Positions 1 to 9,198 of a stretch of 9,198 bases of DNA are shown here, piece after piece. The stretch's first letter is position 1; each line of letters begins with the position of its first letter. The notes under the pieces were generated by a model. That model did not search any database and was not told the origin of the DNA. It worked only from the letters and a program-made list of their open reading frames with translations. Source of the stretch: Acholeplasmataceae bacterium (lineage in GTDB: Bacteria; Bacillota_I; Bacilli_A; ML615J-28; CAG-698); NCBI GenBank assembly GCA_012841765.1, contig DUUA01000037.1, positions 1-9,198 of the forward strand, in the 5' to 3' direction. The position numbers and the translations under genes are program-made.

Positions 1-42
1 ATTAAATATATTATATCATAAATATTACTTAATTACTATAAA

Positions 43-69
43 AAAATAAACCGTAAAACGGTTTATTTT
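43..69 (-). terminator. Intrinsic terminator after the TetR gene
   Basis: An 11-bp perfect stem (43-53 paired with 59-69) closes a 5-nt loop. On the minus strand the A-run at 41-46 reads as a T-tract. The TAA stop codon of the TetR gene (63-65) lies inside the first stem arm, so the hairpin starts within the coding end. It probably ends the M29-EIIC-TetR transcript. The hairpin is symmetric with T-runs on both sides, so it could also act weakly on plus-strand transcripts. Bases 1-42 beyond it are AT-rich and hold nothing I can recognise. Confidence 0.85.
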
Positions 70-659
70 GTAAATTCTAATTTTAAAAAATCTATATATT
101 GATTGTAATCTTCAATCGCTTCTTCTTTCCCAATCATCTTTAATAAATAATTTGAAATACAATTTCGACCAATCATCATTACTAAATCTCTTAGTTTATT
201 AGTTGTGCCTGTTTCAGCCATTTCAAGTGGCAAAACATGTCCTTCTAAATAATCTTCAGAACTATACTTTAAAGCACTATCCTTTGTTTCAGATTTTTCA
301 AAGTTCATCATTGTTTGCATAACATTAAGTCTAAACTGTCTATTTTTTTCTTTTTCTAAACTACTAACTTTATTAGCAAAATTTAATTTTAAAGCTTCGT
401 AAACATCATTATCAGTTTTCTCTAATGTTTTAACAAATCTATACTTATCAAACCCATATAAGTAGTCCAAAAGATATTTAAATAAATCTTCAATATCTTC
501 AAAATACTGATAAAAACTTCCTCTGGGTATTTTAGCTTCTTTAACAATATTAGCAATAACAGCCTTTTCCAGAGGTACTCGTGAAAACTCACTTTTAGCC
601 GCTCTTAGTATTCTTAATCTCTTATCTTTCGATAAATTCATAAATGTATTAGTTGGCAT
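63..659 (-). CDS. TetR/AcrR-family transcriptional regulator
   Basis: The 198-residue product has the usual TetR length. The N-terminal DNA-binding domain spans about residues 10-60: a first helix (KRLRILRAAKSEFSR), then the helix-turn-helix, ending in the family hallmark GSFYQYFEDIEDLF (47-60). Residues 65-198 are helical and would form the ligand-binding and dimer domain; they are too divergent to suggest a ligand. The ATG start is supported by AAAGGAGGT at 666-674, with GGAGG ending 7 nt upstream. It is the last gene of a same-strand run behind an EIIC-like membrane protein gene (53-nt gap) and also has its own promoter. A near-palindrome over that promoter suggests autorepression. The natural hypothesis is that it senses a substrate or product of the adjacent transporter and peptidase. 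Family assignment is firm; targets are inferred. Confidence 0.92.
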   Translation of the reverse strand: MPTNTFMNLSKDKRLRILRAAKSEFSRVPLEKAVIANIVKEAKIPRGSFYQYFEDIEDLFKYLLDYLYGFDKYRFVKTLEKTDNDVYEALKLNFANKVSSLEKEKNRQFRLNVMQTMMNFEKSETKDSALKYSSEDYLEGHVLPLEMAETGTTNKLRDLVMMIGRNCISNYLLKMIGKEEAIEDYNQYIDFLKLEFTK

Positions 660-4056: not shown

Positions 4057-4077
4057 AAAAGGAGTCTTACTCCTTTT
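4057..4077 (-). terminator. Intrinsic terminator after the InlB-repeat gene
   Basis: A perfect 9-bp stem (4057-4065 with 4069-4077) has a 3-nt loop, and a T-run (minus strand of 4055-4060) follows the GC-containing part. The TAA stop of the InlB-repeat gene (4067-4069) sits in the loop and stem edge. It should separate the OsmC-InlB pair from the reductase gene, whose own promoter is not clear in the AT-rich 4002-4056 stretch (several TATAAA-like boxes, no convincing -35). Confidence 0.85.
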
Positions 4078-5314
4078 CATAAATTGCATATAAAGTTTTA
4101 AAAGCATGTTCGTTAGCACTTGCTTTTAAAACAATATCAGACCCTTCAATATCAAGAGACCACCCAATAACTTTCTTCCCAGAAAGTCTTTTTGGTAATG
4201 ATATTTCTTTATCAGCTGCTATATATTTTTTTTCAATTAAAGAAGCTGTAGAACTTGCTAAGTTTTCTTTTATTCCATCTCCACTATAATCGACAGTTTT
4301 TGGCCAATTTAAATGAAATCTCCCTACAAATAATGAATTTAATTCATAACGAACTTGCGGTTCAGAATTAAATTTATTGTTTTCATAATTAAATTTTTCT
4401 TTTATTAAATGGTCACTAACATTATTTTGTAAATATTTAATTAACCAAATCCATTTAGTATACATTTTCTTATTGCTTAAAAAATAATCTAATTTTCCAC
4501 CATAGCTTTTTACAAGAAAATCACAAATAGAACCATGAACTTTATTTTGAATACTTTCCTTTGTTACATTTAATCCTGTAATTAAAGAAAAATCTTTTAA
4601 AAAATCAGTATATAAAGACTCAAAACTATTGTATCCATCATTTGAATGTAGATTAACAATTGTTTTCCATTTTGCATATAATGTTATATTTTTAGTTAAT
4701 TTACCATTAAATAAAAATCTAAAACTAGAGTCAGTATACCATCCTAGAAATAAATAATTATTTCTTTGGGGAATCGGAACTACTATTTCTTTTTCATCTG
4801 TTTCAAAAACTTCAATTATAGCATCAGGGTAGGTTGTCATATATTCCCATATTAAATCACTATTCTTAATTTGCGGGGCTTCTTTACTATTTTGTAATTG
4901 CTCTTTTGTTTCAAATTTAAAATACTTTGCTGTATCTACAAGCGCAGCCCAAGAACTCGCGAAAAAATCATCCGCATTAAGTTCATTACAATGTTCAATT
5001 GTTCTCCAATTTTTGAAGAAAGGAATTAACAATTTTATTAAATTTACATGTTTATTGTTTTTATAACAATAACCAATAAAATAATCTTCAGATTGTTCTT
5101 CTAATTTACTACCAGGTTTTTGCTCTAAAAAATATTTCCCAGCGTACTTTCCTATTAAATATGGTTCCAAGTGAATAAATTCAATAAACTCAATTTCAGC
5201 TAATGCTTGATTATAATTTTCATTAATGAAGTAATATAAATCTTGATAAAACTTTACTTTAATATCATTTTTAGGGTTAAAAACTCCCCCATTTAATTCA
5301 TACTTTATTTGCAA
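4067..5314 (-). CDS. InlB B-repeat (Flg_new)-like protein with helical insertions, unknown function
   Basis: The function of this 415-residue protein is not recognised. InlB B-repeat pieces are visible but split. YELNGG (5-10) looks like the first strand of a repeat. Its usual second half, VPIPQRNNYLFLGWYTD...ITLYAKW (179-216), comes only after about 150 residues rich in aromatics and probable helices. A second helical block (223-305) follows. Then VRYELN (321-326) is matched by ISLPKRLSGKKVIGWSLD (371-388) and LYAIYEK (408-414), again separated by extra sequence. FFKNWRTIE (99-107) and YTKWIWLIKY (285-294) may be equivalent positions of a repeated helical insert. There is no signal peptide, membrane segment or LPXTG, although InlB repeats usually occur on surface proteins. 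The TTG start is fixed by GAGGTGA 7 nt upstream, which overlaps the OsmC stop, so the two genes are translationally coupled. Confidence 0.8.
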   Translation of the reverse strand: MQIKYELNGGVFNPKNDIKVKFYQDLYYFINENYNQALAEIEFIEFIHLEPYLIGKYAGKYFLEQKPGSKLEEQSEDYFIGYCYKNNKHVNLIKLLIPFFKNWRTIEHCNELNADDFFASSWAALVDTAKYFKFETKEQLQNSKEAPQIKNSDLIWEYMTTYPDAIIEVFETDEKEIVVPIPQRNNYLFLGWYTDSSFRFLFNGKLTKNITLYAKWKTIVNLHSNDGYNSFESLYTDFLKDFSLITGLNVTKESIQNKVHGSICDFLVKSYGGKLDYFLSNKKMYTKWIWLIKYLQNNVSDHLIKEKFNYENNKFNSEPQVRYELNSLFVGRFHLNWPKTVDYSGDGIKENLASSTASLIEKKYIAADKEISLPKRLSGKKVIGWSLDIEGSDIVLKASANEHAFKTLYAIYEKE

Positions 5315-5320
5315 GATTAA

Positions 5321-5327
5321 TCACCTC
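5321..5327 (-). promoter_or_regulatory. Coupling Shine-Dalgarno site over the OsmC stop codon
   Basis: GAGGTGA on the minus strand contains the TGA stop of the OsmC gene (5321-5323). It lies 7 nt before the TTG at 5312-5314. Ribosomes finishing OsmC would be placed directly at the start of the InlB-repeat gene. This supports the TTG start and a co-expressed pair. Confidence 0.8.
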
Positions 5328-5719
5328 AATATTTCTACTTTTAATTCCATTTCAGCAACATGACCAATAGTGTTATATATTGAACAATACTTAGCACCAA
5401 GTTCTGCACTTCTAATAAGTTTCTTTTCATCAGAAGGACTTTTAATTTTCACATCAACTAAAACATGTCCTAAAGTTCCAATTTTATCATCTTGTTTCTC
5501 CCCTGAAATTTCAATCGTTGCGTCAATAATTTCCAATTGCATTTTGTCAGCAATAGATAAAAATGTTGCATAAAAACAGCTCCCTAAAGCTCCATATAAT
5601 AAATTATAAGGAGCTAATGTGTTTTCCTTTGCTCCAACCTTTGTATTTCCTCTAGGCCCAATTAATTCTCCTTGATATCCTTCGCTAAAATTTAATGTTA
5701 CCGATTCTGTTTTTTTCAT
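5321..5719 (-). CDS. OsmC/Ohr-family peroxiredoxin-like protein
   Basis: This 132-residue protein has typical OsmC-family length. The two family cysteines are present: C48 in GALGSCFYATF and C112 in AKYCSIYNTIGH. In OsmC and Ohr enzymes they form a thiol-disulfide pair in a dimer that reduces organic or hydrogen peroxides in the cytosol, recharged by a dithiol such as lipoyl protein. The context LAPYNLLYGALGSC matches the family's usual A-P-(X)-LL-aSlgsC pattern, while the Ohr/OsmC/YhfA subgroup cannot be told from reading alone. The ATG is supported by AAAGGAG (5728-5734), 8 nt upstream. It is the first gene of a coupled pair with the InlB-repeat protein, and a thioredoxin-reductase-like gene follows beyond the terminator, so a local thiol-redox theme is plausible but inferred. 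Confidence 0.92.
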   Translation of the reverse strand: MKKTESVTLNFSEGYQGELIGPRGNTKVGAKENTLAPYNLLYGALGSCFYATFLSIADKMQLEIIDATIEISGEKQDDKIGTLGHVLVDVKIKSPSDEKKLIRSAELGAKYCSIYNTIGHVAEMELKVEILR

Positions 5720-5823: not shown

Positions 5824-7110
5824 TTAATTATCTTTATTTCTAATTTCTTCAATTTTTAGTTTATATAATTCTTCTACAGCAAAATGGATCTTAGTAACAA
5901 TATCTTTTTTATTAATTGGAAATAAATAATAAGTATCATTAGAATTAGAAAAACTAAAAGCATCTCCTTTTCCAAAGTAATCATACTCTACATGAATACC
6001 ATAGTTTTCTAAAACAGATTTATGTATTTTTAACTCTTCTGTCTCATTTTTAAAATGCAAAGAAAACCCATTATAGTCATGAACAACACTCCCTTTGCCA
6101 ATCCTATAAAACCCATCACTATTTGGCAATGAATCAATATTCACATTAATCTCCAAATGATAATTTCCGCTTAAAATCTCTTTTTTTACTTGTTTTCTTT
6201 CCCACTCATACCAGTCTGGAATATGGGAAAACTCAGTTTTTCCAGCTATAGCTTTTAATCTTCCAAGTGTATCCATTTCATATTTTTTCCCGCAGGATTC
6301 ACACCAAATATAATTATCTTTAGTATTCATTTCGTGTTCTACAAAACAACTAGGGCATTGATACAAAACTTTATTTAATCCCTCTGCTCTTTTTTGATAA
6401 TGATTATGAATATTATTTTCTACTTGATAAGCATAATCATCATAAATAAAAACTTTATTAATTTTTGCAGTAATTTCCTCAACTGATAAATTTTTTATTT
6501 CTTCTGCGGTAAATAATTTTTCTAAATTAGCATTTATTTTGACTTTATTCTTACGTAAATTCCAAACTGGCTGACGTAAATGATTACCATGAGTAATAAA
6601 AGTAGCTACTGGAACATTTAAATACTTAATAATTTTACCTAAACTCTGAGGTAAAATTGCATTAGTTCCAACCAATGAATATCTCGCTTCGGGATATAGG
6701 GCACAAATATATTTATTATTTACAACGCTATGTTTGATTTGCCTAATAAGATTAATATCAGAAATAAATTTACGTTTACCGATACCACCAACATTTCTAA
6801 GTAAATTTTCACGATTAATAAATCCATCAATAGCAACAACATAATTAGCAGGTCTTGGAAAAATAGCTTTTGTAAGAACTGCAAAGTCAGTAAAACTATT
6901 GTGATTACATAAAAGCAAATACCCATCTTTAAAATCTTCCATATTTTTTTTATGTATTTTTGTTTTACAAATACTATTTTCTGGTAAACTAAAAAGCCAA
7001 GTAACTGGTCTTAAATACCATTTAGTTTTTTTAGGTAGCATCTTCATATCAAATCGAGCCATAGCATCAATTTCTTTTATTGTTTTGTATTTTATATCTT
7101 TAATCTTCAT
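5824..7110 (-). CDS. PlsC-like acyltransferase with C-terminal zinc ribbon
   Basis: The 428-residue protein starts with a lysophospholipid/glycerol-phosphate acyltransferase domain (about 50-230). The catalytic HNSFTD (H70, D75) matches HxxxxD. YPEARYS (139-145) stands where the family has PEGxRS, and PVATFITHGNH (167-177) is a further family-like block. This enzyme class moves an acyl chain to a lysophospholipid-type acceptor at the inner membrane face. Next comes a zinc ribbon with CPSC (252-255) and CESC (270-273), then a domain of about 150 residues that I do not recognise. An open frame runs 9 codons further up to a TTG at 7137, but that stretch holds the -10 box and AAAGGGG. I therefore chose the ATG at 7108-7110. 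Normal stand-alone PlsC is about 200-250 residues, so the C-terminal half is an addition. Acceptor and acyl donor are unknown. Confidence 0.85.
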   Translation of the reverse strand: MKIKDIKYKTIKEIDAMARFDMKMLPKKTKWYLRPVTWLFSLPENSICKTKIHKKNMEDFKDGYLLLCNHNSFTDFAVLTKAIFPRPANYVVAIDGFINRENLLRNVGGIGKRKFISDINLIRQIKHSVVNNKYICALYPEARYSLVGTNAILPQSLGKIIKYLNVPVATFITHGNHLRQPVWNLRKNKVKINANLEKLFTAEEIKNLSVEEITAKINKVFIYDDYAYQVENNIHNHYQKRAEGLNKVLYQCPSCFVEHEMNTKDNYIWCESCGKKYEMDTLGRLKAIAGKTEFSHIPDWYEWERKQVKKEILSGNYHLEINVNIDSLPNSDGFYRIGKGSVVHDYNGFSLHFKNETEELKIHKSVLENYGIHVEYDYFGKGDAFSFSNSNDTYYLFPINKKDIVTKIHFAVEELYKLKIEEIRNKDN

Positions 7111-7116
7111 AAATTT

Positions 7117-7123
7117 CCCCTTT
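7117..7123 (-). promoter_or_regulatory. Shine-Dalgarno site of the acyltransferase gene
   Basis: AAAGGGG lies 6 nt before the ATG at 7108-7110. It decides the start: the longer in-frame TTG at 7135-7137 has no such site and would translate through this one. Confidence 0.65.
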
Positions 7124-7128
7124 ATAAT

Positions 7129-7134
7129 ATTATA
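7129..7134 (-). promoter_or_regulatory. Putative -10 box of the acyltransferase gene
   Basis: TATAAT lies 18 nt before the ATG. A start about 7 nt downstream would leave a leader of only about 11 nt containing the Shine-Dalgarno site. No good -35 is found at 16-18 nt upstream (ATGCAA at 17). It directly follows the terminator of the upstream gene, which supports an independent promoter here. Confidence 0.45.
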
Positions 7135-7167
7135 CAATTATTACTCATATTTTGCATTAAATATACC

Positions 7168-7194
7168 AAAAAAGAGACATTAATAATGTCTCTT
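7168..7194 (-). terminator. Intrinsic terminator after the large surface-protein gene
   Basis: A perfect 10-bp stem (7172-7181 with 7185-7194) has a 3-nt loop. Six A residues at 7168-7173 read as a T-run on the minus strand. The TAA stop codon (7193-7195) overlaps the outer base pairs of the stem. It is the strongest terminator in the window. Confidence 0.9.
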
Positions 7195-9198
7195 AAATGT
7201 TTGGTGTGTAATCAATTACATCTTGTTTACCCCAATCTAATTCAGTATTATCACTTACAATTCGTAAAATCATATCATACCTTTTTGGAACAAGTTCAGA
7301 TGGAATTGTTATCGTTTTATCGACAATTGTGACACCAGATGACACGAATTCTATTTGAAAATCATATCCCTCTGGTAAATCAATATCAATACTATACTTA
7401 CCACTCATGGAACTTCTAAATTGTTTATTAATGCCTGTTCTTGTTCCATCAAAATAACTAAATAGAGACATTGAGCTTTGAATTAATTCATTTTGATATA
7501 GATTAAAAGTAACAAAAACTTTTTCAAAATCAAAATCAACTACACTATTGTCAACAAGAATAGTTAAATTAAAATATATGTTATTAGTAATATCTTGAAC
7601 AGAAACAAAATAATCTGTATAATGTGTCGAATAAATAGGATCACCTATAATATAATCTTCAGCATAAATACGGTATTGAACATATTTAAATCCGCCAGCA
7701 ATATCAAAAGTAAAGTCATCAAATAAATCTGTTGACTGCATATTTGGATCATTCGCATTATTTTCATCAACTATTTTTCTAATAATAGAACCAGTTGGTA
7801 AATAAAACAACGGTGAATAATAAGCTAAATCACTCTTTTGGACTTGGCCAATAACATAAAATGTTTGTTCATTTTCATATTCATTATAACTAATTCCAGA
7901 TGATGGAAGAGTAGTTATTCTTCTTGTTGAAGGATTATCTATATAAGAAATATAAGTAACTTCAGTAATAAGTTCATAATCCATTATTATATTTAAACCC
8001 GCATAAACTGTATCAGAAATAAATGTAATGTTTGTTAAATTACTAACATCACTAGCTAACTTAATTATTGTCATTGTTTCAAAAACAAATTCCCAATTAA
8101 CTGTTTCTCCTGCAATTGTAAGTTCTTGCTGAAACAAAGGACTATAGGAATAATTACCAATTGCTGCAGAATAATCATAATCTATTTCAAATCCTTTGAT
8201 AATATAATCAATAAAATATGCTTGATTTAAAATAGCATTGTCTGGGTCTCCTCCTGTATAACTACTTTCAACAGTAAAATTATTATTTGCTAGATAAACA
8301 TTCGATAAATCATATTCAATTCTAAAGAAAGAAATTTCTTCTCTTAGCAAACTTGATTGATTTAGAGGTATTTCTAATTCATTACCATCTTTATATGATT
8401 TGATAATCAATTCGGAAGGTTCTTCCTCAATCAATTTATGAGTAAATGTCTTAATAGTTCCATCTTCAGCAACTATTGTATAAATTATTTCATATTGATG
8501 CTGGTAAGTTAAGGAATCGTAAATAGAAATATTAAAGTCAACATTAGTTAATTCTGCATTAACAGATAAAGAATAAGCATCCAAATAACTAGGTAATATA
8601 ATTGATTCAACATCACTAAAATTAACAATTTTAGTGTTTGTATCTTCTGATCTATAAAATATACCATAAGGAATAGAACTAATTAATTCAGTTTCTCCAT
8701 AAATATCATAAACATTTCCATTGTATATAAATTCAGTAAATTCTGCTTCATTACTCATTTCTTTTGAAATATGAATGTCATATAAATCATCAATTGCAAG
8801 CCCTGTTTCTATTCTATAGTCACCACTTGCCATCAAGTCACTAAACCTCAAAATAATCTTAACACTACCTACTCCGTAAGTAGCAAGATTTTCATTGTAA
8901 GCTTCAACAGTCTCAACAATCCCATTTTCAAGAGTGTAAAGAGATGAATCAACAACATTATTTAACGCATCATATATTTTTATATTATGTTTTAAATCAG
9001 TACCATCAGGTACATTATTAGTTAAATAAGAAAATTCTAAACTTGGAGCAGCGCTTGCTTTATAAAGAGCTGAATTTGTAATATCTATATTATTTATATT
9101 GGTGTAGGTAGAATTACTATTTATTCCATCAACTTTTATATCTGTAATACCCGTAATAGATTGTGGTTGAACACGTTTAATTAAAACTTTATAATCTC
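7193..9198 (-). CDS. C-terminal part of a large cysteine-free, beta-rich, probably extracellular protein (5' end outside window)
   Basis: The frame stays open to the window edge: 115 codons without a stop precede the TTG at 8849-8851, and that TTG has no Shine-Dalgarno site. The gene is therefore partial, with 667 residues visible, and begins beyond base 9198. The visible product has no cysteine, few Trp, and many Tyr, Ile, Asn, Asp and Ser, with alternating short strands typical of stacked surface beta-sandwich domains. YTIVAEDGTIKTFTHKL (visible residues 239-255) resembles the final strands of cadherin-like or Ig-like bacterial surface domains. Near the C-terminus, SGKYSIDIDLPEGYDFQIEF resembles a carboxypeptidase-regulatory-like fold. 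There is no LPXTG, membrane segment or charged tail at the C-terminus, so any anchor would have to be N-terminal (for example a lipobox) or absent. Secretion is inferred, because the N-terminus is not visible. Function is unknown; adhesion is only a guess. Confidence 0.85.
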   Translation of the reverse strand, partial: DYKVLIKRVQPQSITGITDIKVDGINSNSTYTNINNIDITNSALYKASAAPSLEFSYLTNNVPDGTDLKHNIKIYDALNNVVDSSLYTLENGIVETVEAYNENLATYGVGSVKIILRFSDLMASGDYRIETGLAIDDLYDIHISKEMSNEAEFTEFIYNGNVYDIYGETELISSIPYGIFYRSEDTNTKIVNFSDVESIILPSYLDAYSLSVNAELTNVDFNISIYDSLTYQHQYEIIYTIVAEDGTIKTFTHKLIEEEPSELIIKSYKDGNELEIPLNQSSLLREEISFFRIEYDLSNVYLANNNFTVESSYTGGDPDNAILNQAYFIDYIIKGFEIDYDYSAAIGNYSYSPLFQQELTIAGETVNWEFVFETMTIIKLASDVSNLTNITFISDTVYAGLNIIMDYELITEVTYISYIDNPSTRRITTLPSSGISYNEYENEQTFYVIGQVQKSDLAYYSPLFYLPTGSIIRKIVDENNANDPNMQSTDLFDDFTFDIAGGFKYVQYRIYAEDYIIGDPIYSTHYTDYFVSVQDITNNIYFNLTILVDNSVVDFDFEKVFVTFNLYQNELIQSSMSLFSYFDGTRTGINKQFRSSMSGKYSIDIDLPEGYDFQIEFVSSGVTIVDKTITIPSELVPKRYDMILRIVSDNTELDWGKQDVIDYTPNI

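What the first reader, a model, noticed from the sequence alone, without database searches (positions are those of the whole stretch)
4067..5314. InlB B-repeat halves split by long helical insertions in a protein without a signal peptide
Seen: YELNGG at residues 5-10 and its expected partner GWYTD...LYAKW at 191-216 are separated by about 150 extra residues. The pattern recurs at 321-414 in degenerate form, and the two inserts share a W-containing patch (FFKNWRTIE and YTKWIWLIKY). Known: InlB B-repeats (Flg_new) are compact, about 70 residues, and mostly on surface proteins. Inferred: this is a rebuilt architecture in which the repeat strands frame a helical module, perhaps cytosolic, co-translated with an OsmC enzyme. 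It may be an undescribed domain family.
Basis: partly seen in the sequence, partly recalled or inferred. Interest (0 to 1): 0.7.

Follow-up and report, generated by a model that had tools for sequence, protein, structure and literature searches.

The report
Surface-protein repeats split by helical domains
A bacterial protein without an export signal is built from two small repeat domains of a kind usually found on cell surfaces, each cut open early to hold a separate, undescribed helical domain, and the same nesting recurs in surface proteins of related bacteria.

Summary
The 415-aa ORF (4067-5314, minus strand) belongs to a conserved family (46 rows including the window, 39-78% identity). A confident AlphaFold model superposes residues within 1..218 on one InlB B-repeat and within 217..415 on a second; each is split after its first strand by about 155 and 130 residues.

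The inserts are not two copies of one module. Insert 1 (type 1) recurs in 156 other proteins fetched here, 121 with an N-terminal signal, often as the C-terminal unit of a short B-repeat array or in GH18 proteins. Insert 2 (type 2) recurs in large B-repeat proteins, where 43 of 61 copies precede a B-repeat lacking its first strand. No Pfam or NCBIfam family covers them.

None of the 46 family members shows an export signal. OsmC adjacency holds in 3 of 8 loci.

Best reading: a cytosolic offshoot of a surface-display architecture in which the B-repeat's first loop hosts helical domains. Ligand binding is inferred, not shown. New variant of a known kind.

The parts
4067..5314 (-). Two-module split B-repeat protein, 415 aa, TTG start
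   Evidence: ORF; 45 full-length homologues; codon-position pattern
5285..5314 (-). First strand of B-repeat 1, residues 1-10 (MQIKYELNGG)
   Evidence: Strand 2-6 in the model; aligned within B-repeat superpositions with model range 1..218 and 1..220
4820..5284 (-). Insert 1 (type 1, FFxxWRxxE ... WAxLVDTxKxF), residues 11-165
   Evidence: Folds alone with pLDDT 93.7, pTM 0.89; found in 169 of 227 proteins and 202 of 260
4661..4819 (-). Second part of B-repeat 1, residues 166-218
   Evidence: Flg_new at 174-215, profile 20-65; TIGR02543 at 182-218; superposition
4637..4666 (-). First strand of B-repeat 2, residues 217-226; continuous with the last strand of repeat 1
   Evidence: Strand 210-223; superposition range 217..415
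4244..4636 (-). Insert 2 (type 2, KWxW ... H ... DY), residues 227-357
   Evidence: HMM from 46 exported rows only finds it at E 4.8e-17; HMM from 13 rows at 2e-7
4070..4243 (-). Second part of B-repeat 2, residues 358-415 (degenerate in sequence)
   Evidence: Superposition; C-terminal halves of repeats 1 and 2 match by hhalign, probability 96.9
5320..5327 (-). Shine-Dalgarno-like GAGGTGAT, overlapping the end of the OsmC gene
   Evidence: Sequence
5321..5719 (-). OsmC gene directly upstream, six bases before the start codon
   Evidence: PF02566, E 1e-14; same order in L001 and L052

Best explanation
The gene encodes a cytosolic protein made of two InlB-type B-repeats (beta-grasp folds) in tandem. 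In each, the loop after the first strand holds an autonomous, mainly helical domain: type 1 in repeat 1, type 2 in repeat 2. Shown: the split fold (by prediction and superposition), the two insert families, their recurrence in exported B-repeat proteins, and the absence of a signal in this family. Inferred: in exported proteins the B-repeats form the stalk and the insert-bearing repeats are the working, ligand-binding units; this family is a signal-less offshoot of that architecture. The two stable beta-grasp frames hold the two helical domains in a fixed relative orientation, and the protein acts by binding one or two intracellular ligands, probably through the strictly conserved W-R-E / W-VDT-K-F face of insert 1 and the HSNDGY, KWxW and H-x(7)-D-Y-S-G residues of insert 2. 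It is not a dedicated OsmC partner.
For: Split fold. Insert 1 alone folds confidently. Insert-1 HMM built without family rows finds 46 of 46 family members (E 1.2e-41 to 1.3e-29; no reversed decoy hit). Type-2 HMM from 46 exported rows only finds insert 2 in 46 of 46 (E 1.6e-19 to 3.7e-10; best reversed decoy 0.5); a 13-row HMM gives 46 of 46 at E < 0.05, 41 at < 1e-3, best reversed decoy 4.2. Exported context: 121 of 202 insert-1 carriers have a hydrophobic N-terminus, 114 of them with a lipobox-like Cys; in 82 of the 90 shorter than 720 aa the insert ends within 90 residues of the C-terminus. 28 of 33 long carriers have GH18. 43 of 61 type-2 domains are followed by a B-repeat lacking its first strand. 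No signal in 46 of 46. One clade on the tree (SH-aLRT 100). Residues F100, W103, R104, E107, W122, V126, D127, K130, F132 at 1.00 (rounded) in 169 rows.
Against: No ligand, partner or activity is known for either insert. Conserved residues could be structural; a diverged carrier in L058 has Q and S at the E107 and D127 positions (read by eye). 18 of 61 type-2 domains are not followed by a half B-repeat, and P0205 has two type-2 copies in tandem without one between them, so type 2 does not need the frame. About 20 of 202 insert-1 carriers have lost the GW motif of the second half. The signal test is a hydropathy window, not SignalP. Direction of evolution (surface to cytosol) is not rooted. Selection of ORFs for searches was biased to those with hits.
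Confidence: 0.6

Rival explanations
1. An enzyme: one or both helical inserts carry an active site, and the beta-grasp halves are only a frame.
For: Polar residues invariant in 46 of 46 rows: R104, E107, D116, D127, K130 in insert 1; N225, D226, K287, E324, N326, H334, D342, S344 in insert 2. Insert-1 residues are kept in exported carriers too. Enzyme-like genes neighbour it, but differ between clades.
Against: No Pfam, NCBIfam or PDB sequence match for the inserts and no Foldseek match at E <= 0.001. Exported type-2 domains keep little but K-W (one invariant column of 222, K71), unlike a catalytic site.
Confidence: 0.2
2. It is a surface protein exported without a classical signal, working as its lipoprotein relatives do.
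For: 121 of 202 insert-1 carriers have an N-terminal signal-like segment; B-repeats are described as stalk domains of adhesin-like proteins (PMC9210967, passages).
Against: 46 of 46 family rows begin directly with the first strand and lack a hydrophobic N-terminus (max mean hydropathy 0.86 against a cut-off of 1.9). Other signal-less insert-1 proteins exist, one fused to a Dabb domain (P0217).
Confidence: 0.12
3. It works with OsmC in peroxide or thiol stress as a co-translated pair.
For: Adjacent to OsmC in the window, L001 and L052, overlapping its end in the latter two; M29 and PTS genes follow in all three, a thioredoxin-reductase-like gene in two.
Against: OsmC is not next to the gene, nor anywhere in the DNA held, in L002, L004, L005 and L006; L003 is cut off about 600 bases upstream.
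Confidence: 0.08

Closest known systems
InlB B-repeat / Flg_new (PF09479, TIGR02543); PDB 2y5p, 7nms, 10qi
   Same: Beta-grasp-like fold; YxLNGG first strand; GW[Y/F] and LYAKW motifs; tandem arrangement with the last strand running into the next repeat
   Different: First strand separated from the rest by about 155 and 130 residues; no signal peptide; second repeat degenerate. PMC8900821 (passages) describes the InlB B repeat as compact, with an extended loop instead of the helix between strands 2 and 3; the insertion here lies earlier, before strand 2
Fibrillar adhesin-like proteins with Flg_new stalks (PMC9210967, passages)
   Same: Exported relatives have a lipoprotein anchor, B-repeat array and an undescribed domain, often C-terminal
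   Different: The undescribed domain is nested inside a B-repeat, and the window protein has no anchor or signal
Pilus adhesins whose binding domain is nested in a stalk-type fold (such as RrgA; recalled, no call)
   Same: Idea of a functional domain presented by insertion into a stalk domain
   Different: Different folds throughout; no sequence or structural relation tested

Membership tests
InlB B-repeat (Flg_new) | Sequence match above the curated cut-off | tested here: met
   Repeat 1: 38.9 bits against 27, but profile positions 20-65 only. Repeat 2 of the window is not detected; relative P0027 has two matched stretches
InlB B-repeat (Flg_new) | Beta-grasp-like fold | tested here: met
InlB B-repeat (Flg_new) | One contiguous unit of about 65-75 residues | tested here: not met
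   Both units are split; 1 of 87 hits full length in the family. Hence filed as a variant, not an ordinary member
Fibrillar adhesin-like surface protein | Export signal and surface anchor | tested here: not met
   0 of 46 family rows by hydropathy and lipobox pattern; met by 121 (signal) and 114 (lipobox-like) of 202 insert-1 carriers
Conserved OsmC gene pair | Adjacency kept across the family | tested here: not met
   3 of 8 loci yes, 4 no, 1 cut off
Known helical domain (Pfam, NCBIfam, PDB sequence) for the inserts | Significant match | tested here: not met
   No family shared by members at E <= 10 (30 of 45 reduced type-1 rows; 12 type-2 rows); PDB sequence search none for type 1 and best E 0.25 for type 2; NCBIfam on whole window protein and six other inserts
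Known fold for insert 1 | Structural match in PDB | tested here: inconclusive

The most novel reading that the evidence does not exclude
In one order of Bacilli the loop after the first strand of the InlB B-repeat is a general docking site for whole domains: at least two helical families and one further, apparently beta-rich class have been inserted there, giving surface proteins in which plain repeats alternate with domain-bearing ones, and this kit has been taken into the cytosol in the family of the window.
Probability: 0.6. Interest if true: 0.7.

Novelty: new variant of a known kind. Interest (0 to 1): 0.6.

Why it matters
B-repeats are known as small, compact stalk units whose partners are largely unknown. 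If their first loop regularly carries whole domains, many InlB B-repeat proteins of uncultured Bacilli are under-annotated: domain scans report half repeats and miss the modules. It gives two definable new domain families with conserved residues to test, and a case where a surface-type architecture appears in a protein with no export signal.

Tried and rejected
Chance motif: rejected by the model, the superpositions and 45 full-length homologues.

Tandem copies of one insert: insert 1 against insert 2 gives only the first strand plus helix (hhalign probability 25, 14, 80 and 68 depending on the profiles; reversed control E 0.69). Insert-1 HMM finds insert 2 at best E 0.18; type-2 HMMs find the N-terminal part of insert 1 at best 5.7e-4 and 3.2e-5. 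Distant kinship of the entry segment stays open.

Viral origin: no relatives in viral contigs; phage records match P0052 only in its ordinary B-repeats, query positions 23-178, before the insert. One BFVD hit at E 4.5e-4, a phage tail protein (TM 0.17), was not followed up. PHROGs: no family shared by members.

Fold library: absence of a PDB match for insert 1 is no proof of a new fold.

Papers: five searches, listings only except passages of PMC9210967 and PMC8900821; no listed title or abstract opening describes inserts in B-repeats. Preprints other than those in PMC and subscription papers were not searched.

Failed or empty: searches (no genome held for the window; wrong handle form; machine busy; same request repeated, answered), scripts 87 and 88 (my regular expressions found no repeats; mended in 89). 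The regex count (112 of 202) was too strict and is replaced (179 of 202, plus P0162, P0166 and P0169 by eye).

Full report
What is there. The minus-strand ORF 4067-5314 encodes 415 residues from a TTG with GAGGTGAT upstream. A protein search gave 224 proteins at E <= 0.01, of which 120 were listed; the first 46 rows (the window and 45 others, 415-428 aa, 39-78% identity) align end to end. Further rows match only in part.

Insert 1. Alone, with 30 of 45 reduced rows as alignment, it folds at pLDDT 93.7 and pTM 0.89. No Foldseek match is better than E 4.7. Its HMM finds 169 of 227 proteins from the first two searches and, rebuilt, 202 of 260 from all three. An HMM without any family rows still finds 46 of 46 family members, window E 4.6e-31. 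In 169 rows F100, W103, R104, E107, W122, V126, D127, K130 and F132 are at 1.00 after rounding; a carrier in L058 departs at the E107 and D127 positions (by eye). Of 123 non-family carriers in the first two searches, 83 have signal plus lipobox, 7 signal only and 33 neither, some of these visibly truncated. In all, 121 of 202 have a hydrophobic N-terminus, and 82 of the 90 under 720 aa end within 90 residues of the insert. Of 33 long carriers 28 have GH18; P0178 shows a weak dockerin match below its cut-off, P0217 a Dabb domain. 179 of 202 keep an F-x(1,2)-W motif after the insert, and 3 more do by eye. P0247, P0254 and P0255 have two insert-bearing repeats among plain ones.

Insert 2. It aligns with stretches of exported P0199, P0205 (twice), P0208 and P0209. 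In large ORFs of the same order it is typically followed by a B-repeat hit starting at profile position 16 or later. In 107 ORFs of at least 300 aa from 30 loci chosen for such hits, 211 B-repeat hits reach the profile end: 120 start at 6 or before and 80 at 13 or later. Of these 80, 29 follow a type-2 and 2 a type-1 insert, 31 follow an unassigned gap of 60-260 residues, 13 a shorter and 5 a longer gap. By single linkage 13 of the 31 join the type-2 cluster that holds the window's insert 2; 5 others form a third class that reads as beta-rich, an impression from sequence only; at least three of the 31 are not inserts (leader or repeat sequence). An HMM from 46 exported rows finds insert 2 in 46 of 46 family members (E 1.6e-19 to 3.7e-10), reversed decoys 0.5 or worse. 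Those rows had been gathered partly with a profile that included family members; a 13-row HMM of inserts first noticed only as gaps in split repeats still gives 46 of 46 at E < 0.05, 41 at < 1e-3, window 2e-7. Of 61 type-2 domains in 34 ORFs, 43 are followed by a half B-repeat, 7 by a full one, 11 by none. Of those 34 ORFs, 19 show signal plus lipobox, 8 a hydrophobic N-terminus without my lipobox pattern, and 7 no hydrophobic start (apparently cut at the locus edge).

Distribution. The insert-1 profile matches 21 of 296 sampled genomes of the class of G001, 20 of them among the 43 genomes of one order, and 6 of 392 of the phylum. The two-insert protein occurs in 6 of those 43, once each. Type 2 matches 36 of 296. 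On a 68-row tree of insert 1 the 18 two-insert rows are one side of a branch (SH-aLRT 100).

Neighbourhood. By tblastn with the window's proteins, OsmC lies next to the gene in L001 (75%) and L052 (45%), not in L002, L004, L005 or L006; L003 ends about 600 bases upstream. M29 and PTS genes follow in L001 and L052.

Function. Nothing here shows an activity. The binding-module reading rests on the exported relatives (B-repeat arrays ending in or carrying the insert, fused to GH18 or amidase) and on Flg_new being treated as a stalk domain (PMC9210967, passages). In InlB the groove beside strand 2 is proposed as a binding site (PMC8900821, passages); the inserts sit just before that strand, which may be no accident (inference).

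Noticed in passing
L097, L105, L110, L090 (large B-repeat ORFs): A third class of insert in split B-repeats (five linked sequences, W-x-Y-K-I-L-L ... WTHAL), looking beta-rich; other unassigned inserts (U10/U13, U03/U23, U24/U28) may be distant kin.
   Followed up: partly
L089:43-8658, L098:4243-13596, L099:885-10418: Proteins of 2872-3178 aa with 10-13 Flg_new stretches, Big_2 domains and a C-terminal Amidase_2 domain, with several domain-bearing B-repeats.
   Followed up: partly
L007:8918-12868 and L008:7359-11204: Lipoproteins with insert 1, a further B-repeat and a C-terminal GH18 domain, in a conserved place between thrS-like and amidohydrolase/trmFO-like genes (names by eye).
   Followed up: partly
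P0217; L055:5347-6367: Signal-less insert-1 protein fused to a Dabb domain in P0217; in L055 a Dabb-like ORF overlaps the start of a similar insert-1 ORF.
   Followed up: no
window 7193-9196: Large protein, open at the window end, with no Pfam or NCBIfam match; a homologue lies at the same place in L001.
   Followed up: no
window 5824-7137: Acyltransferase-like protein (PF01553 below cut-off) with a cysteine pattern like a zinc ribbon in its middle.
   Followed up: no
BFVD A0A8S5R1G9: Phage tail protein matched to the full model at E 4.5e-4 over 247 columns but TM 0.17; may hold split B-repeats.
   Followed up: no
L058:4559-5563: Diverged lipoprotein with insert 1 in which the otherwise constant E and D positions read Q and S.
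   Followed up: no
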